From Armatimonadota bacterium (lineage in GTDB: Bacteria; Armatimonadota; Zipacnadia; Zipacnadales; JABUFB01): 64,000 bases of DNA. The stretch is from the NCBI GenBank assembly GCA_013314775.1, contig JABUFB010000013.1:62001-126000 (forward strand), in the 5' to 3' direction. Below the pieces are notes generated by a model. The model did no database searches and had not been told where the DNA came from. It saw only the letters and a list, made by a program, of their open reading frames with translations. The position numbers and the translations under genes were made by a program. This document shows positions 26,326-33,645 of the stretch, one piece after another; position 1 is the first letter of the stretch; every line of letters starts with the position of its first letter.

Positions 26326-26531
26326 GTCGTTCCTCTCCGCGAGCATGTATCCGTCGCGCCCCCCATTCGCGCCGGCCGTTTCACACCGCACTATTGCTCT
26401 TGGGTCCCCCTGATTCCTCCACCCCGCCGGCACGGTATTGAGCAGTCCCGCGGAGGACTCCCCTCGCCACAAGGGGAAGTGTTGCGCATCTGCGACGGGC
26501 ACGCGCCCGTTTTCCACCGGGAGGAACCGAA

Positions 26532-27371
26532 ATGTCTGAGCTGAAAATCGCGGTCATGCTCGGAAACCTGCGCATGGATCGCTATGAGGGCATGAAGAAG
26601 GTCGTCGAGATGGGCGTGCCCGCCATTCACATCACCGCTGGAGGCGACTGGGATGCGCGCACCATGACCTCCCAGGAACGCAAGGACCTGGTGGCCCACG
26701 TCAAAGGTCTGGGGCTGGAAATCTCCGCAATCTCTTGCTGGGGTGGCAACGTAGACCTGGGCGAGGAGGAGGGCTGGGATGAAAACGTGGAGTGGGGCAA
26801 GCGCAATCTCGAACTGGCGGCGGACCTGGGCTGCAATATCTGGCAGGGCCACTGCGGAATCATGCCCGAAGACCCGGACGATCCGGCCTGGCAGCGGTTC
26901 CTGGACGGCATGGGCATTCTCGGGGAATACGGTGAAAAGCTGGGCGCCTGCTTGGCCATTGAAACTGGGCCCGAACCGCCGTACGTCCTGCTGAAGCTCA
27001 TCCACGAAGTGGGCTACGACGGCATCCGCATCAACTGGGATCCGGCCAATCTTATACTTTGGCCGGCACGGTACGCGGAGCAACTGGGCGAAAAGTACAA
27101 CCGCGAGAAGTGGATTGAGCGCTACCAGCCCAACGAGGGCGCGCGCGCACTCGCGGAGTACATCGTGCACACCCACGCCAAGGATGCCTTGGTGCATCCG
27201 GATGGCAAGCGCCAGGAAGTTCCTCTCGGCACGGGCTGGGTGGACTGGCCCCGGTATGTAGGCTACCTGCGCGAAGCCGGTTACGACGGGTACTTCGCCA
27301 TTGAGCGTGAGACCGGCGAAGACCCGGTGGGCGATATCCAGGCGGCCGTGAACTTCCTGCGCACTCTCTGA
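26532..27371 (+). CDS. Sugar phosphate isomerase/epimerase (xylose-isomerase-like TIM barrel)
   Basis: A 279-residue AP_endonuc_2-type TIM barrel. Motifs placing metal-binding residues at strand ends are visible: ISAISCWGGNVDLG, GHCGIMPED, LAIETGPEPPYVL, IRINWDPANL and VHTHAKDALVH, and the final GYFAIERETGEDP. Such enzymes interconvert ketoses or inositols. GGAGG stands 8 bases before the ATG. It is divergent from the GH38 gene, so a role in processing released sugars fits. The substrate is not determined by sequence. Confidence 0.9.
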   Translation: MSELKIAVMLGNLRMDRYEGMKKVVEMGVPAIHITAGGDWDARTMTSQERKDLVAHVKGLGLEISAISCWGGNVDLGEEEGWDENVEWGKRNLELAADLGCNIWQGHCGIMPEDPDDPAWQRFLDGMGILGEYGEKLGACLAIETGPEPPYVLLKLIHEVGYDGIRINWDPANLILWPARYAEQLGEKYNREKWIERYQPNEGARALAEYIVHTHAKDALVHPDGKRQEVPLGTGWVDWPRYVGYLREAGYDGYFAIERETGEDPVGDIQAAVNFLRTL

Positions 27372-27442
27372 ACTCCGCGAGATCAGCCGGAGTCGATGTA
27401 ATTGGGAGTGCACCATAGTCCATGTGGGGAGAAGGTGATCCA

Positions 27443-28969
27443 TTGAAGCTTACCCATAATGTCATCAGTTTCTGCCTGGCGGCAATCATGGTCGTTGCGG
27501 CAGCCCATGCCGGAGGCGCCGTCCTGCCCCGCCAGGCGGTCAAGGGCACACTCATCATCGTCTCCAACCGTGAACGCGCCGTGTTCGAGAACCACCTGTC
27601 CGGGCTCAAGCCGCAATACCTGGTCTGGGTGAGCCCCGACACCCCTCGCGACCAGGTTGAAATGCCTCCCGCCGGCCTGGCAATGGTGCTGTTCCTGATT
27701 CAGACGTCGCCCGAAGGCGTGCCGATTGACCCGAGCTGGGATGAGGACCTGCCCGTGCCTGCAGGGGAGATCAATAAGGCGGGCATGATGATCGCTGCAA
27801 AGACCATCCACCCGCCGGGGAATCCCGTGCCCAAATGGTATGCCTGCGTGGCGGTCTCCGCGCCCAATGAGAAGCTGCTGAAGGTGAACCTCGCCGAGGC
27901 CATGCGACTGGAGGAATTCCCGCTCAACAAGCCGATCGTCCGTGACGTCCTGGACCTGCGGCGGTTCCGCAGCATCGCCTGCCTGCCTCTGCCGACAGAA
28001 GGCTACTATGGGCCGATCAACACTGCCGCCGAAGCCGCGCTCTACAGGGCGCTGGTGGACCTGCGGGTGTTCAACGTCGTGGGGCGCGAGTCCCTGTCGC
28101 TGTCGCCGCTGGGAGGCTCTGTGGTCGGCGCACGCGCCCGGGATCTGGGCCGAGACCTGAACGTGGACGCACTGGTCTACGTGGACATCACCGGCGCCGA
28201 GACCACCTGCGAGGAGCGCATCAAGTACAAGAAGAGCTCGAAGACCGCAGTCTCCGCGACCCGGCAGCGTGAGTTCGAGCGCGAGAAAGCGGAAGCTGAG
28301 GCGAAAGGACGGACTTACAGTCGCAAGAGCCCTTCTCCCGATCTCGTCTGGGCTGCTCCTTACCGCGTCCGAACTTTCACCACCGCACTGGAAGGCTCCG
28401 TCCGGATGATCGACGCCCGCAATGGAGCAGAAGTGCTGGTGTTCGACATCAGCGACGAGACCGTTTCTCGCGAAGAAGACGCCGTGCGCAGCATCGACTA
28501 CCGATGGTACCCCCGCGACGAGATCGACGAGGAAGACGCGGATCTCATCCAGACCTACACCTGCCGGCTGGCGGTGGCGGAGGCTACAGAGCTGGTGCGC
28601 GCCGAGATTGACCGTTTCCGGGTCTTCCTGGACACCCGCGCCATGCTTCCGATCCCCGGCCAGGACTTCGAGGCCCAGTACCCGCCCATCCCGGGAGCAG
28701 ATACTGTGGCGCGGGTCATTAGCATTGACGGCCCCGACATCTTCATCGACCTGGGGCGCGAGCATTCCGTGAAGCTGGGCGACAGCCTGAGCCTGTGGAT
28801 CGACAAACAACTCACCGACCCGGCGACCGGAGAGGTCATCGAGACCATCAAGGCCCGCGCGGCAACGGTGCAGGTGGTGGAAGTGTACCAACGGACGAGC
28901 CGCTGTGAGATCGTCAAGGAATCCGCGGAGACGCCATTCGCGGTGGGCATGGAACTGGTCCTGGACTGA
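27443..28969 (+). CDS. Secreted CsgG/FlgT-like protein
   Basis: A 508-residue exported protein I cannot name. A signal peptide (FCLAAIMVVAAAHAGGA) precedes a unique N-terminal domain. The middle part, ALYRALVDLRVFNVVGRESL through LNVDALVYVDITGAE, resembles CsgG-type periplasmic domains. It contains a Lys/Glu-rich insertion (about residues 256-300), and the last 90 residues (VARVISIDGPDIFIDLGREH, VKLGDSLSLW) look like the small beta-barrel of FlgT C-termini. The TTG at 27443 is preferred over the ATG at 27422 because AGAAGGTGA lies just before it and the signal peptide then starts correctly (MKLTHNV). It precedes the acetate-kinase-like gene by 24 bases, so they are probably co-transcribed. 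Confidence 0.65.
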   Translation: MKLTHNVISFCLAAIMVVAAAHAGGAVLPRQAVKGTLIIVSNRERAVFENHLSGLKPQYLVWVSPDTPRDQVEMPPAGLAMVLFLIQTSPEGVPIDPSWDEDLPVPAGEINKAGMMIAAKTIHPPGNPVPKWYACVAVSAPNEKLLKVNLAEAMRLEEFPLNKPIVRDVLDLRRFRSIACLPLPTEGYYGPINTAAEAALYRALVDLRVFNVVGRESLSLSPLGGSVVGARARDLGRDLNVDALVYVDITGAETTCEERIKYKKSSKTAVSATRQREFEREKAEAEAKGRTYSRKSPSPDLVWAAPYRVRTFTTALEGSVRMIDARNGAEVLVFDISDETVSREEDAVRSIDYRWYPRDEIDEEDADLIQTYTCRLAVAEATELVRAEIDRFRVFLDTRAMLPIPGQDFEAQYPPIPGADTVARVISIDGPDIFIDLGREHSVKLGDSLSLWIDKQLTDPATGEVIETIKARAATVQVVEVYQRTSRCEIVKESAETPFAVGMELVLD

Positions 28970-28993
28970 ACAATACCCGAAAGCGAGAAGTGC

Positions 28994-30190
28994 ATGATCG
29001 TACTGGTTCTCAACAGCGGCTCATCGTCCATCAAGTACAAGCTCTTTGATATGGCGCGCGAGGAGGTTCTCGCCGCCGGAGTCATCGAACGGGTGGGCAC
29101 GCAGAGTGCGATTCTGCGACACAGGGTGCCCGGCCGGGCCGAGATCACCCGCGGGCAGCCCGTGCCCAATCATGCGGTGGGCATCGAGATGATGCTCGAG
29201 GCGCTTACCAGCCCGGAGGGCGGTCCGCTCGAGAGCCTTCGGCAGGTGGATGCCGTCGGCCACCGGGTGCTGCATGCCGCGGAGCACTACTCGGGATCGG
29301 TACTGGCATCGCCCGAGGTCATCCGAGCTATCGAGGACTGCGCGGACCTCGCGCCTTTGCATAACCCGCCCAATCTCGCGGGGATCCGGGCATGTCAGGC
29401 AGTCATGCCGAAGGTGCCCCATGTCTGCGTCTTTGACAATGCCTTGCACCAGACACTACCGCCGGAAGCCTACACGTACGCGCTGCCTTACGAATTCTAC
29501 GAACGCCACGGCGTGCGGCGGTACGGGTTCCACGGGATCGCATTCCGGTCGGCTTTCGAGCGCGCACGGGTGATCCTCGACGAACCGGTGGATGACCTGC
29601 GCATCGTAACCCTCATGATGGGCAGCGGGAACACCGCCAATGCTTTCGACCGCGGGCGCTCAGTGGATGTGAGTACCGGATTTACTCCGCACGAGGGCCT
29701 TGTGCAGAGCACTCGCGCGGGCGACATGGATGCAGCGCTGATCCCGTGGCTCATGGCCAAGGAGGGCCTGACCGCGGAAGAGATGACGGAGATTATCAAC
29801 CGCCGCAGCGGCTGGCTGGGCATCTCTGGGATCAGCGCCGACCTGCGGGACATCATCCAGGCCGCAGGCGAGGGGCACAAGCGCGCCCAACTCGCGCTGG
29901 CGATCCACGCGCGCAGAGCCCGCAAGTACGTGGGCGCATACGCGGCGGTCATGGGCGGTATCGACCTGCTCATTTTCGCCGGGAGCGTGGGCCAAAAGGC
30001 TCCCGCCGTGCGCGCCGAGATCTGCCGGGGACTGGAGTTCATGGGTCTTTCCCTGAACACGGCAGCCAATGAGGCCACGCTGGAGGAGGGCATCATCTCG
30101 AGTCAGGGTGGCGCGGCGCGCATTGTTGTGGTGAACGTGGATGAGGAACTGGTGATCGCTCGTGACACCGTGCAGATCGTCGGCGGATAG
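28994..30190 (+). CDS. Acetate-kinase-family protein with altered active-site motifs
   Basis: A 398-residue ASKHA-fold kinase homologue that keeps acetate-kinase numbering almost exactly. Conserved: VLNSGSSSIKYKLFD at the start, Arg91 (GHRV), His123, Asp148 (VFDNALHQ), His180 (YGFHG), Arg241 (STRAG) and Glu384 (VDEELVIARDT). Changed: the family GFHGTSH becomes GFHGIAF (position 184 Phe for His), HLGNG becomes MMGSG (208 Met for His, 211 Ser for Asn), and the ATP-loop GIGENS becomes SVGQKA. True acetate kinase (acetate plus ATP to acetyl phosphate) is therefore doubtful; it may use another acyl or sugar substrate, or be regulatory. No phosphotransacetylase gene is nearby. Confidence 0.85.
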   Translation: MIVLVLNSGSSSIKYKLFDMAREEVLAAGVIERVGTQSAILRHRVPGRAEITRGQPVPNHAVGIEMMLEALTSPEGGPLESLRQVDAVGHRVLHAAEHYSGSVLASPEVIRAIEDCADLAPLHNPPNLAGIRACQAVMPKVPHVCVFDNALHQTLPPEAYTYALPYEFYERHGVRRYGFHGIAFRSAFERARVILDEPVDDLRIVTLMMGSGNTANAFDRGRSVDVSTGFTPHEGLVQSTRAGDMDAALIPWLMAKEGLTAEEMTEIINRRSGWLGISGISADLRDIIQAAGEGHKRAQLALAIHARRARKYVGAYAAVMGGIDLLIFAGSVGQKAPAVRAEICRGLEFMGLSLNTAANEATLEEGIISSQGGAARIVVVNVDEELVIARDTVQIVGG

Positions 30191-30215
30191 CCCTGTTGTG
30201 CCGGCGCGAGTGACA

Positions 30216-30635
30216 ATGACACCTGGCGTTATCCGCATCGTGTCGGGCATGGTGGCAGCGGTCTGCTTCGCCATGATTGCACTGGCGTTCGTGCTTATTC
30301 CCGACCCCAGCGGCGTCGGCACGCATCAGCAGATGCTGGCGCCGCCGTGTTGGCTGCACCTGTTCACCGGGCTGCCATGTCCCCTCTGCGGGATGACCAC
30401 CGCGTTCGCCCACATGGCTCGCGGTCAGGTCATGCAGGCCTTCGCCTGCCACTGCCTGGGCCCTGGTGCGTACCTTTTCGTCTGGGCTGTGGGTATCTGC
30501 GGGCTTTGGGGACTGGTCACGGCGCGGTCTTACCCCTTGCGACTATTGGCGAGGTACGACGTGCAGAAGCTGCTGCTTGCCGTCGTGGTCGGGGGATGGA
30601 TGGTGAATCTGGCGCGGGTCATATTACGGCCGTGA
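30216..30635 (+). CDS. DUF2752 small membrane protein
   Basis: A 139-residue membrane protein with three hydrophobic segments (about IVSGMVAAVCFAMIALAFVL, YLFVWAVGICGLWGL and LLLAVVVGGWMVNL). The diagnostic DUF2752 motif GLPCPLCGMTTAFAHMARG is present, with the paired cysteines. Function of the family is unknown. The start is uncertain: no good ribosome-binding site precedes the ATG at 30216, and GTG codons at 30198 and 30210 are in frame. It follows the acetate-kinase-like gene closely. Confidence 0.8.
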   Translation: MTPGVIRIVSGMVAAVCFAMIALAFVLIPDPSGVGTHQQMLAPPCWLHLFTGLPCPLCGMTTAFAHMARGQVMQAFACHCLGPGAYLFVWAVGICGLWGLVTARSYPLRLLARYDVQKLLLAVVVGGWMVNLARVILRP

Positions 30636-30666
30636 CGGCTCGCCGGCCCGCAGGAGGTCTGGCTCC

Positions 30667-31086
30667 ATGAACTCCTGGCACGACCGCATCGTCACCCACG
30701 ACGGCCAGATGCGCATGCTGGACGAGATTCTCGGCGTCTACCGGCAGATGCATATTGACGTGCGCTGGGAAATGCGAAGCGTGTCGCTGCATGACCTGAT
30801 CGCCACCCAGAATGGCATCGAGGCCGACAAACTGGAGGTCGTGGCCGAGCGGGTCCGCGATGGTCGTCTGGAGGTCCCGATCATCGTTGAGGAGCACTTC
30901 GTGGATGATCGCTACAAGCGTTACCTGCTGGACGGGCACTGCCGCACTCGCGCCCGTATCGAAGCTGGCGTGATGCGCAGCATGGCGTATGTGATATGGT
31001 CACCCGCCGGAGATTTCCCCTCCAACTTCGTGACTGCGGCGGCACGCTACGGCAACCGGCTGGTCCGAGATCTGCCCCTGATATGA
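30667..31086 (+). CDS. ParB/sulfiredoxin-like domain protein
   Basis: A 139-residue protein with the ParB-N/sulfiredoxin-like fold signature: hydrophobic strand VEVVAERVRDGRLEVPIIVE (as LEVVAERV), then YLLDGHCRTRARIEAGV, matching the family D-G-x-x-R-h-x-A motif. It lacks the DNA-binding helix-turn-helix and dimer domain of chromosomal ParB, so it is not a partition protein; stand-alone domains of this kind can bind or hydrolyse nucleotides. AGGAGG lies 8 bases before the ATG. It is the last gene before a bidirectional terminator. Role unknown. Confidence 0.72.
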   Translation: MNSWHDRIVTHDGQMRMLDEILGVYRQMHIDVRWEMRSVSLHDLIATQNGIEADKLEVVAERVRDGRLEVPIIVEEHFVDDRYKRYLLDGHCRTRARIEAGVMRSMAYVIWSPAGDFPSNFVTAAARYGNRLVRDLPLI

Positions 31087-31091
31087 GCAAC

Positions 31092-31125
31092 GCGCGCCGG
31101 GCGGAATATCTTCTGCCCGGCGCGC
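31092..31125. terminator. Bidirectional hairpin terminator
   Basis: An 11-bp stem GCGCGCCGGGC (31092-31102) / GCCCGGCGCGC (31115-31125) between convergent genes ending at 31086 and 31141. Confidence 0.75.
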
Positions 31126-31140
31126 AGCGTTTCGCTTCAC

Positions 31141-33645
31141 TCAGCCCTCGTACCTGAAGAGCCCCACATCATCAAACAACACCCTGGCATCCTCGCCTTG
31201 CCCCGATGCGCCGGGCATGACCAGGAGACTCCCCGTGCCCTCCGGGATGGTCACAAGCACCACCAGTGGCTGCCAGTCCTCCCCCGCGGCGGTCACAGTC
31301 GGCTCCAGGTCTCGCCGCGCATGCCACGCGCCTTTCTCGTCGCGGAACCGCACGCTGAGCGTTACGGTGTACGGCTCCGCAGCCGGCTCAGGCTTGGCCC
31401 AGGCGATCACCAGGTACTTCTCTCCCGGCTTCACCTTGTGGTCCTGGATGAACACGCCCGAATCCGCGCCCGTGATGGCTGCGGCCACCGAGCCGTTACG
31501 TCCCTGGCCACCGACTGTCTCGAAGCGCGTCCGGGCCGGGTTCCGGCTCCAGGTGGACCAGCCCTTTGGCGCACCGGCGGTCTGCCAGTCCTTCTCGGGA
31601 CGATCTACGTTCTCGCCCGTGTCTTCGAAGTCGCCGTTCACCAGCAGGCTCTTCGGCCTGTTTTCTTGCACCCAGGTCCACGCACGGAGGGTGTCCACCA
31701 CCGAGTTGTTCGTTTCCGCCCCGAGACTGTCCAGCACTTGCCGCATTTTCGCCGGGTCCCTGTCCGAGTACCACGCCAGCACCTTCATGGCGCCCGATAT
31801 GGCCCCCGCCTCCAACTGGGTAATCTTGCCGGTCTGAAGGTAGCCCATCTGGTCGCCGAGACCGCGCAGGTTCTCGCCCAGCAAGTCGTCGCGGGCGTGG
31901 CACTCGGCCCAGAATGCTTCCCGCTCCGCCGCCATATCCCCCATGAGCTTGATCTTGGCCAGCACATCCGCAGCGGTCTCCTCGTCATCCACCACGGTCC
32001 GCGTGAGTTCCTGGGACAGGCTGTACGCCTTGATCGCGTACCCGGCGTAACGCAGCGCGGCTCTGTGCATGGCGATGCGCTCCTGAACGTCCGGGTCGCC
32101 AGTGGAGTTGATCCCGGTCTGCAAGATCTCCATCCCGCGGTCGATGGCTTCTGGTGACACCGCGAGCGCCTGGTTGCGTATATTGCGGTGCACCCAGCCG
32201 ACGCGGCCATCCCGCGGGGTGTTCCATTCGCGCTCCAGCATGTCGAAGTATTCCTTCATGATGGGCGCGGCCGGGCCGTACATCTTTGTGTAGAACTCTC
32301 CCAGCAGATCGTCGATATTCAACGTGTGATCCCACTGGAGCTTGGCGCACGCCCAGATCATCGGCGCGGTAAAGGGCAGGAAGGTGTAGACCTCGATGTA
32401 CATGCCCTCCAACCCCAGCGACTTATCGAACTTGATCTGCTCGTCCATCGCGTGGGGATACACGCGCGGCGTGAAAGTGCCCATGCCGTAATAATCGTAC
32501 CGCGACAGGTGCTTGCAGCGCTGGGCCCACTGGCGGGTGAGTTCGTGGTCGGCTTCCCGCCGGCCCTCCTGCCACCACAGGGCGCTGGTCTCGGTAATGA
32601 ACCCGAAAACGTTATCTTCGAGCTTGTCCACCGTCTCCGGCAGTTCCCGGGCGATGTTGTAGATCAGCGTCCCCACATAGCGGTCTGGGTGGGTCTTTGC
32701 GATCTCCTTCGCGATGATGTTCACGAACTTGTAGTGGCGGTCCGAGAACTTCCGCTTCTCGTAAGAGTCCGGCTCCGGGTCCCAGGCCCGGCAGTTGTCG
32801 CAACTACACAGGTGTGAGATATCGTCCATCCCCACGGAAAAGCTATCGATATTGGGGTGGTCGTCGAACCATTTGCGGGCGTACTCCACCACAAGCCGCT
32901 GGACTTCCGGGTTGCTCTCGCAGGGCCGCCAGTAGCGGTTCCCAGGCTCCGGGATGTACCGCTCGCCATTGACCAGCGGGAAGTACTCCGGGTGGGTCTC
33001 GCCGTACTTCTGCGGCGTGATGACATTGTGAAGGAAGTTCTGGAACTGCCGGCGCGGGACCACTTCGCTGAGCACCGTCTTGTTGCGCAGATTCCAGTCC
33101 TTCCAGTCATCAAACCATGCGTGGCCGGACCAGATACGCGGCGACGTTCCCGGCACCACCACGCGGCTCTTGACATCGACGATCAGTTCCCCCTGTGTGC
33201 CCTGCGGCACCCATTCCCAGAGATCCCCCGGCGCGAACCAGCGCACCCCGAGGTCATCTTCGATGAAGGAGTACACTGCAAAGCAGACCGGGGTGGGCCA
33301 GCGCGCCGCGAAGTAAAGATTGCCGTCGCGCACTCGGATCGCGTAGCTCTCGGGGTTCAGGTCCGCCGCGGGTAGGTCCTCGTCCGCGGAGGGCTCACAG
33401 TTGCCGATATACAGCCCCGATCCATCCACTCGTCTGCCGTCCTCGGCAAGCGGGACCGTGACGCCGCAGATCTGCCGGATATACTTCTGTAGATCAAGCG
33501 CGGCCTGCTTGACCTTCCCGTCCGCGTCGGCCTGAAGCACGATGGTTGCCGCGGGCCGTCCATCACGCGCGAGCGCCAACCTGTCGGCATCGGCGGCACT
33601 GATCACTGCCGAAAGCAGCGCGATCACCATGGCTGTTCGTATCAT
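31141..33645 (-). CDS. Secreted DUF4838 protein with C-terminal CBM-like domain
   Basis: An 834-residue exported protein, second DUF4838 member of the window. The signal peptide (TAMVIALLSAVISAADA) is followed by a GH67-N-like domain (AALDLQKYIRQICGVTVPL) and the DUF4838 core with HLCSCDNCRAWDPEPD, corresponding to WCECPECQAIDG of the 5.7-8.0 kb protein. The C-terminal 150 residues begin SLLVNGDFEDTG and read as a jelly-roll CBM_4_9-like module (FIQDHKVKPGEKYLVIAWAK). The ATG at 33645 has GAGGA upstream and starts the signal peptide. It would act outside the cell on a polysaccharide or glycoconjugate; specificity unknown. An SDR gene lies 22 bases upstream on the same strand. Confidence 0.82.
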   Translation of the reverse strand: MIRTAMVIALLSAVISAADADRLALARDGRPAATIVLQADADGKVKQAALDLQKYIRQICGVTVPLAEDGRRVDGSGLYIGNCEPSADEDLPAADLNPESYAIRVRDGNLYFAARWPTPVCFAVYSFIEDDLGVRWFAPGDLWEWVPQGTQGELIVDVKSRVVVPGTSPRIWSGHAWFDDWKDWNLRNKTVLSEVVPRRQFQNFLHNVITPQKYGETHPEYFPLVNGERYIPEPGNRYWRPCESNPEVQRLVVEYARKWFDDHPNIDSFSVGMDDISHLCSCDNCRAWDPEPDSYEKRKFSDRHYKFVNIIAKEIAKTHPDRYVGTLIYNIARELPETVDKLEDNVFGFITETSALWWQEGRREADHELTRQWAQRCKHLSRYDYYGMGTFTPRVYPHAMDEQIKFDKSLGLEGMYIEVYTFLPFTAPMIWACAKLQWDHTLNIDDLLGEFYTKMYGPAAPIMKEYFDMLEREWNTPRDGRVGWVHRNIRNQALAVSPEAIDRGMEILQTGINSTGDPDVQERIAMHRAALRYAGYAIKAYSLSQELTRTVVDDEETAADVLAKIKLMGDMAAEREAFWAECHARDDLLGENLRGLGDQMGYLQTGKITQLEAGAISGAMKVLAWYSDRDPAKMRQVLDSLGAETNNSVVDTLRAWTWVQENRPKSLLVNGDFEDTGENVDRPEKDWQTAGAPKGWSTWSRNPARTRFETVGGQGRNGSVAAAITGADSGVFIQDHKVKPGEKYLVIAWAKPEPAAEPYTVTLSVRFRDEKGAWHARRDLEPTVTAAGEDWQPLVVLVTIPEGTGSLLVMPGASGQGEDARVLFDDVGLFRYEG

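What the first reader, a model, noticed from the sequence alone, without database searches (positions are those of the whole stretch)
28994..30190. Acetate-kinase homologue with the same numbering but several lost active-site motifs
Seen: residues align position by position with Methanosarcina acetate kinase (Arg91, Asp148, His180, Arg241 and Glu384 retained), yet His184 is Phe, His208 is Met, Asn211 is Ser, and GENS is QKAP. Known: those motifs line the substrate and ATP sites. Inference: a neofunctionalised ASKHA kinase. It lies between a secreted CsgG/FlgT-like protein and a DUF2752 gene, not beside phosphotransacetylase, which supports a non-acetate role.
Basis: partly seen in the sequence, partly recalled or inferred. 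Interest (0 to 1): 0.55.

Follow-up and report, generated by a model that had tools for sequence, protein, structure and literature searches.

The report
Acetate-kinase paralogue with rebuilt active site
A bacterium keeps a normal acetate kinase and a second, ancient copy whose active site has been rewritten in the same way in all ten relatives found, so it probably does a different, still untested, phosphate-transfer job.

Summary
Confirmed: window 28994-30190 (+) encodes a full-length acetate-kinase-family protein (TIGR00016, 402 bits; model Z 50 to acetate kinases) that keeps Asn7, Arg91, His123, Asp148, His180, Arg241 and Glu384.

The host is an Armatimonadota MAG that also carries a canonical ackA and two Pta-family genes elsewhere. 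The same substitutions occur in 10 of 291 genomes of the phylum and in 0 of 42 canonical comparators. These ten proteins form one clade (99/96 even with active-site loops removed) and are under purifying selection: a fixed second architecture, not decay.

Five of the ten host genomes carry bacterial-microcompartment shell genes and PduL. In one, the kinase overlaps an acylating aldehyde dehydrogenase gene by 4 bp. In the family of the window the microcompartment genes are absent, and the kinase sits in a conserved TIM-barrel/FlgT_C/kinase/DUF2752 gene string.

Best reading: an active acyl-phosphate kinase with altered donor or acyl preference, from an aldehyde-to-acyl-CoA-to-acyl-phosphate pathway. 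Substrate and activity are not shown; a pseudoenzyme remains possible.

The parts
28994..30190 (+). AckA2: acetate/propionate-kinase-family paralogue, 398 aa
   Evidence: ORF; PF00871 396 bits, TIGR00016 402 bits over cut-off 293; AlphaFold model mean pLDDT 89.9, Z 50-51 to acetate kinases
29012..29035 (+). PHOSPHATE1 loop N7-S-G-S-S-S-I-K14, canonical
   Evidence: alignment
29435..29437 (+). Asp148, retained; followed by T149N
29531..29545 (+). H180-G-I182-A183-F184: His180 kept, Thr182/Ser183/His184 replaced
29612..29635 (+). PHOSPHATE2 loop L207-M208-M-G-S211-G-N-T214 (canonical CHLGNGxS): His208 and Asn211 replaced
   Evidence: role of Asn211 from PMC4390882
29705..29722 (+). LOOP3 Q238-S239-T-R241-A-G (canonical MGTRxG): Gly239 replaced, Arg241 kept
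   Evidence: role of Gly239 from PMC4390882
29984..30004 (+). ADENOSINE loop S331-V-G-Q-K-A-P337 (canonical GIGENSx): Gly331 and Asn335 replaced
30143..30145 (+). Glu384, retained
26532..27371 (+). Xylose-isomerase-like TIM barrel (AP_endonuc_2), first gene of the conserved string
   Evidence: PF01261 115.6 bits; kept in G001, G002, G003
27422..28969 (+). Protein with FlgT C-terminal domain and a hydrophobic N-terminus (secreted: inference); ends 24 bp before AckA2
   Evidence: PF16538 41 bits; kept in G001, G002, G003
30162..30635 (+). DUF2752 protein; the listed start overlaps the end of AckA2, true start uncertain
   Evidence: PF10825 42.7 bits; kept in G001 and G003, in G003 with a 4-bp overlap

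Best explanation
AckA2 is a catalytically active ASKHA acyl-phosphate kinase, an old paralogue of acetate kinase whose ATP-phosphate cradle (PHOSPHATE2 loop, LOOP3 and the stretch after His180) was rebuilt once and then held constant. It most likely interconverts a short-chain acyl phosphate and its carboxylate (R-CO-OPO3 + NDP <-> R-COO- + NTP), with a donor and/or acyl preference different from acetate/ATP. The clade probably arose in, or was recruited by, an aldehyde -> acyl-CoA (EutE/PduP-like) -> acyl phosphate (PduL) -> acid pathway linked to a microcompartment, and was kept in the window's family after (or without) that compartment. Shown: homology, fold, retained catalytic residues, fixed new loop residues, single clade, purifying selection, canonical paralogue elsewhere, EutE-kinase gene overlap in one genome, shell genes and PduL in 5 of 10 host genomes. 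Inferred: activity, direction, substrate, pathway, and that the window's copy does what the microcompartment-lineage copies do.
For: Retained N7, S12, K14, R91, H123, D148, H180, R241, E384 in 10 of 10 members, which argues against a dead enzyme. Six fixed replacements, in 10 of 10 versus 0 of 42. One clade, 100/100, and 99/96 with active-site loops deleted. dN/dS NG86 0.107 (YN00 0.058) between G000 and G001. Full-length fold. Canonical ackA elsewhere. In G260 an acylating aldehyde dehydrogenase (NF011927, 545.7 bits) overlaps the kinase start by ATGA. Shell protein PF00936 in 5 of 10 kinase-bearing genomes against 10 of 281 others (Fisher 3.9e-5); PduL in the same 5 of 10. In family f24 the canonical ackA site beside coaD holds only a degenerate, shortened relic in the 3 genomes examined, while AckA2 is full length in the two of these three that have it. 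Published PVM-type microcompartment loci include an acetate kinase as an ancillary gene (PMC4207490, passages).
Against: No activity data. In M. thermophila acetate kinase the single changes N211S and G239S cut kcat from 715 to 13 and 6.8 per second (PMC4390882), so two together plus H208M could be near-dead with ATP. Shell genes and PduL are absent from the window's own genome and from G001-G003 and G011, and these have only distant (25-27%) aldehyde dehydrogenase matches, so the pathway link does not hold there. The EutE-kinase gene pair is seen in 1 of 10 genomes. Four of the five shell-bearing hosts also carry another divergent acetate-kinase homologue ('GGATLK' type: G260, G261 and G263 full length; G059 in two pieces, typed by its position beside an FAH-like gene), which could be the microcompartment kinase instead. 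At the level of families the association is only 3 of 5 against 6 of 40 (p 0.047).
Confidence: 0.5

Rival explanations
1. Pseudokinase or regulator: AckA2 still folds and perhaps dimerises, but no longer turns over; it binds acyl phosphate or a nucleotide and regulates, or forms a mixed dimer with the canonical AckA.
For: H208, N211 and G239 all lost; matching single changes at 211 and 239 are crippling in M. thermophila AckA (PMC4390882). In the window's family it is in a string with a FlgT_C protein and DUF2752, not with metabolic partners.
Against: All retained catalytic residues are invariant in 10 of 10 members (only S10 varies, once), more than a ligand-binding relic should need. In G059 and G261 the other locus, the canonical one, is the decayed copy, so there AckA2 has no canonical partner to regulate.
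Confidence: 0.25
2. Donor switch: AckA2 uses PPi/Pi or another non-ATP donor, as the Entamoeba histolytica acetate kinase does.
For: Residues at the diagnostic positions resemble divergent-donor enzymes: Ser at 239 and a non-Gly at 331 as in the PPi enzyme, Ser at 211 as in the Cryptococcus enzyme (PMC4390882). The substitutions cluster in the phosphate-binding loops, not the acyl pocket.
Against: The inserted Gly of PHOSPHATE2 and the Asp in ADENOSINE, reported for the Entamoeba and related putative PPi-type sequences (PMC5517563), are absent here. Gly331 is kept in 5 of 10 members, so an occluded adenine pocket is not a clade feature. D283 and R285 are kept.
Confidence: 0.12
3. Ordinary acetate (or propionate) kinase with lower turnover; the substitutions are tolerated drift in a redundant copy.
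For: Scores far over the TIGR00016 cut-off; acyl-pocket L122 and P232 kept.
Against: Drift would not fix the same six new residues in 10 of 10 members that differ from the window protein by up to about half of their residues; the loops of 42 of 42 canonical proteins do not drift at these sites; dN/dS is low.
Confidence: 0.13

Closest known systems
Acetate kinase AckA (M. thermophila 1g99/1tuy; T. maritima 2iir; P. gingivalis 6ioy)
   Same: Full-length fold (Z 50-51), 42-45% identity in the structural alignments, residues N7, R91, D148, H180, R241, E384
   Different: H208M, N211S, M238Q, G239S, S183A, S214T, H184F; G331S in the window's family; a canonical copy exists in the same genome
Propionate kinases PduW (7fj7) and TdcD (1x3m)
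   Same: Same fold (Z 46-48) and presumed chemistry; PduW works next to the PduP/PduL pathway (recalled), as proposed here
   Different: Scores below the NCBIfam equivalog cut-offs (383 of 659, 325 of 580). Whether TdcD and PduW keep the canonical loop residues is recalled (they do), not tested here
PPi-dependent acetate kinase of Entamoeba histolytica (4h0o)
   Same: Ser at position 239, non-Gly at 331 in the window's family (PMC4390882)
   Different: No inserted Gly in PHOSPHATE2, no Asp before position 331; 27% identity
Butyrate kinase Buk2 (1saz, 1x9j)
   Same: ASKHA acyl kinase fold
   Different: Weak: 49 bits against TIGR02707 (cut-off 289), Z 29
Acetate kinase of PVM-type microcompartment loci (Planctomycetes, Verrucomicrobia)
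   Same: Acetate-kinase homologue reported in loci with a class II aldolase and microcompartment genes (PMC4207490); some AckA2 hosts have comparable loci with PduL and EutE-like dehydrogenase
   Different: Its sequence could not be fetched here, so whether it shares the AckA2 substitutions is unknown; AckA2 is not in the shell-gene locus itself

Membership tests
Acetate/propionate kinase family (Pfam PF00871, TIGR00016) | Score over the curated cut-off across the whole length | tested here: met
   PF00871 396.4 bits (cut-off 22), residues 3-390; TIGR00016 402.3 (cut-off 293.4)
Acetate/propionate kinase family (Pfam PF00871, TIGR00016) | Full-length two-domain ASKHA acetate-kinase fold | tested here: met
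   Model pLDDT 89.9; Z 51.0, rmsd 1.9, 391 aligned to 6ioy; LOOP3 stretch is low confidence
Canonical acetate kinase (functional sense) | PHOSPHATE1 and catalytic residues N7, S12, K14, R91, H123, D148, H180, R241, E384 | tested here: met
   Identical in 10 of 10 clade members
Canonical acetate kinase (functional sense) | PHOSPHATE2 His208 and Asn211; LOOP3 Gly239 | tested here: not met
   M, S and S in 10 of 10; H, N and G in 42 of 42 canonical comparators
Canonical acetate kinase (functional sense) | Phosphorylates acetate with ATP | not testable with these tools
   needs an enzyme assay
PPi-dependent acetate kinase (Entamoeba type) | Extra Gly in PHOSPHATE2 and Asp before position 331 (PMC5517563) | tested here: not met
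   Loop has the canonical length LMMGSGNT; residue 330 is Gly
Butyrate kinase (TIGR02707) | Score over cut-off 289 | tested here: not met
   48.6 bits
Microcompartment (PVM-type) acyl kinase | Encoded in or beside a shell-gene locus with PduL and acylating aldehyde dehydrogenase | tested here: not met
   Window genome has no PF00936 and no PF06130 match; in G260 the kinase is beside the dehydrogenase, on a contig with no shell-gene match

The most novel reading that the evidence does not exclude
AckA2 founds a further functional class in the acetate-kinase family: an acyl-phosphate kinase in which the ATP-phosphate cradle (His208-Asn211-Gly239) has been replaced as a unit by Met-Ser-Ser (with Gln238), giving either a non-ATP phosphoryl donor or a hydroxyacyl (lactate- or glycolate-type) substrate. 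It was born in microcompartment metabolism and carried on in lineages without the compartment.
Probability: 0.22. Interest if true: 0.72.

Novelty: new variant of a known kind. Interest (0 to 1): 0.47.

Why it matters
Residues 208, 211 and 239 were invariant in all 42 canonical homologues compared here, and changing N211 or G239 singly cripples the M. thermophila enzyme. A natural clade that has replaced all three while keeping the other catalytic residues is a ready-made test of what these loops are for, and of how donor or acyl specificity changes in ASKHA kinases. Practically, its family score would have it annotated as 'acetate/propionate family kinase', so metabolic models of Armatimonadota would count an acetate-forming step twice.

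Tried and rejected
Pseudogene or assembly artefact: rejected; an intact ORF in a 240.9-kb contig, orthologues in nine other genomes, dN/dS well under 1. YN00 failed for 10 of 12 pairs (math domain error), so distant ratios rest on NG86 only, with dS above 1 and therefore rough.

Butyrate kinase or PPi-type kinase by motif: not met.

AckA2 as sister of the other microcompartment-type kinases: 88/84 in the full tree, but 36/0 when active-site loops were removed, so dropped as unsupported.

TIM-barrel neighbour as pathway clue: G011 also has TIM barrels on both sides, but they gave no tblastn match to the window's one at 1e-5; I did not count such genes per genome, so this may be chance.

Operon signals: the promoter/terminator scan of 26400-31200 gave 0 promoter-like and 3 terminator-like sites, close to shuffled expectation; uninformative.

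Other phyla: the only scan outside the phylum was genome contigs with short peptide patterns: 389 relatives, best 80 kept; the one clade member was the G001 contig itself, all others at most 49% identical. That scan also missed G002, G003 and G011, so it cannot exclude members elsewhere. Planctomycetota kinases could not be fetched.

Literature: nine searches listed no paper on this clade; most subscription papers are not held. Of the papers listed I read passages or a section of four only: PMC4390882 (passages, one section), PMC5517563 (passages), PMC3475010 (passages), PMC4207490 (passages).

Dropped rows: the tree left out duplicates and rows under 350 aa (L184, L199) and the fragment L200; the tree also left out the long-branch rows L197 and L198. 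In one search eleven divergent non-clade kinases (L185, L186, L188-L196 except L187, which is canonical) were kept out of the 42 'canonical' rows; those eleven have other changes (R91K, D148E) but keep His208. One of the 42 (L181) has Phe at 184, which is why His184 is 98%.

Full report
What is there. Window 28994-30190 (+) is an intact 398-codon ORF. It hits PF00871 with 396 bits and TIGR00016 'acetate/propionate family kinase' with 402 bits (cut-off 293), below every equivalog cut-off listed for acetate or propionate kinases. The best solved relatives are acetate kinases of T. maritima, M. thermophila and P. gingivalis. An AlphaFold2 model from 34 sequences has mean pLDDT 89.9 and superposes on those enzymes over 391-394 residues at Z 50-51; the weakest stretch, residues 231-250, is LOOP3, one of the altered loops.

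Genome. The window lies in G000, a 6.12-Mb, 37-contig genome (98% complete). It carries a second acetate kinase (contig 20) with every canonical motif, in the same 4.2-kb stretch as coaD, and two PF01515 (Pta-family) genes, on contigs 2 and 6, but no PduL. The nearest named record, 90% identical, is an Armatimonadetes MAG; L033 and L004 appear to be that same 3,732-base contig and are counted once.

Active site. Against M. thermophila numbering the protein keeps N7, S10, S12, K14, R91, L122, H123, D148, H180, P232, R241, D283, R285 and E384. It changes V93L, T149N, T182I, S183A, H184F, C207L, H208M, N211S, S213N, S214T, M238Q, G239S, G331S, E334Q, N335K and S336A. In M. thermophila, N211S lowers kcat from 715 to 13 per second and G239S to 6.8 per second, and Gly331 governs nucleotide preference (PMC4390882; passages, section 3.2). 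The same paper gives Ser at 211 in the Cryptococcus enzyme, and Thr at 211, Ser at 239 and Gln at 331 in the PPi-using Entamoeba enzyme.

A clade, not an oddity. A degenerate DNA pattern for the two altered loops matched 10 of 291 genomes of the phylum, one place each, and its reversed control matched none (an earlier, stricter pattern found 9). The hosts are G000-G003 (family f1), G011 (f4), G046 (f11), G260 (f41), and G059, G261 and G263 (f24). In a 65-row tree the ten form one clade, 100/100. With the active-site loops cut out of the alignment (63 rows, 312 columns) they still do, 99/96. Six positions (183, 208, 211, 214, 238, 239) carry one fixed new residue in 10 of 10 members and the canonical residue in 42 of 42 comparators. 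Of 12 columns where a residue conserved in at least 90% of comparators is wholly absent from the clade, 10 lie in the active-site loops that I had already used as the mask (p 0.013). Gly331 and Asn335 are lost only in part: G331S occurs in 5 of 10 (f1 and f4). Pairwise dN/dS (NG86) in family f1 is 0.107-0.249 for AckA2 and 0.037-0.262 for the canonical copy; only the closest pair, G000-G001, has dS under 1.

Surroundings. In f1 the string TIM barrel - FlgT_C protein - AckA2 - DUF2752 is kept: the first three genes in G001, G002 and G003, and DUF2752 in G001 and G003 (in G002 the contig ends about 480 bases after the kinase). The kinase stop overlaps the next start by 4 bp in G003 (GTGTGA), G011 (ATGA, next gene TIM-barrel-like) and G263 (GTGA, next gene alanine-racemase-like). 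None of these neighbours points to a substrate.

The microcompartment lead. In G260 the gene just upstream, overlapping by ATGA, encodes an EutE/PduP-like acylating aldehyde dehydrogenase (NF011927, 545.7 bits over cut-off 403; 'EutE/PduP-like' and 'acylating' rest partly on recall and on the neighbouring NCBIfam hits). Shell proteins (PF00936) occur in 15 of 291 genomes of the phylum; 5 of these carry AckA2 (G046, G059, G260, G261, G263), against 5 of the 276 without shell genes. Fisher's test gives 3.9e-5 by genome but only 0.047 by family (3 of 5 against 6 of 40), because three hosts share family f24. PduL is present in the same 5 of 10 hosts. A close EutE (50% or more) is in 4 of 9 hosts tested, all shell-bearing; G263 was not in that search. 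A shell locus in G260 holds PduL and a class II aldolase, and one in G046 holds the aldolase and the EutE-like gene, as in PVM-type fucose/rhamnose compartments, whose loci are reported to include an acetate kinase (PMC4207490, passages). In f24 the neighbourhood of coaD, which holds canonical ackA in G000-G003 and G046, carries only a shortened, 25-32%-identical relic in G059, G261 and G262. So in G059 and G261 AckA2 is retained while the canonical copy has decayed.

Against this. The window's genome and the other four f1/f4 hosts have no shell gene, PduL or close EutE. The gene pair is one case of ten. Four of the five shell-bearing hosts also hold another divergent kinase (GGATLK type; full length in G260, G261 and G263, in two pieces in G059), followed by an FAH-like gene in G263 and G059 as in G262 (FAH by eye), which could be the compartment's kinase. 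The link is therefore suggestive of origin, not proof of present function.

Verdict. 'Neofunctionalised ASKHA kinase' is the likeliest reading (about 0.5 for an active kinase with altered preference), with a pseudoenzyme at 0.25. It is a member of the acetate-kinase family by model and fold, but not a canonical acetate kinase, because His208, Asn211 and Gly239 were tested and are not met. Donor or substrate cannot be decided from sequence.

Noticed in passing
L188 (G260), L185 (G049), L189 (G261), L186 (G262), L196 (G263); L190-L195 (G064, G066, G058, G257, G256, G063): Two further divergent acetate-kinase groups in Armatimonadota that carry microcompartment genes ('GGATLK' and 'GSTS' types) have Lys for Arg91 and Glu for Asp148, two catalytic residues.
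   Followed up: partly
L208 2327-3187 (G059), L207 around 1626-2621 (G261), L200 around 1516-2202 (G262): Near coaD, where relatives keep canonical ackA, these genomes have a short degenerate acetate-kinase-like ORF (25-32% identity).
   Followed up: partly
L197 (G042 contig 300), L198 (G007 contig 21): Very degenerate acetate-kinase-like domains inside open frames of 770 and 787 codons; most active-site residues are gone.
   Followed up: no
L115 1687-2778, L201 5302-6381, L132 3821-4330: AckA2 is followed by an alanine racemase gene in G059 (TIGR00492) and, by eye, in G263 (4-bp overlap), and in G260 after an MpaA-like carboxypeptidase gene; reason unknown.
   Followed up: partly
L206 5690-7422 (G059 contig 82): A kinase, GGATLK type by its place beside an FAH-like gene, matches in two separate pieces, so it looks broken there.
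   Followed up: no
window 30667-31086: 139-codon ORF after DUF2752 with no Pfam or NCBIfam match; it is kept in G001 (93% over 94 aa). A ParB-like look (LLDGHCRTRARIEAG) is recalled, not tested.
   Followed up: no
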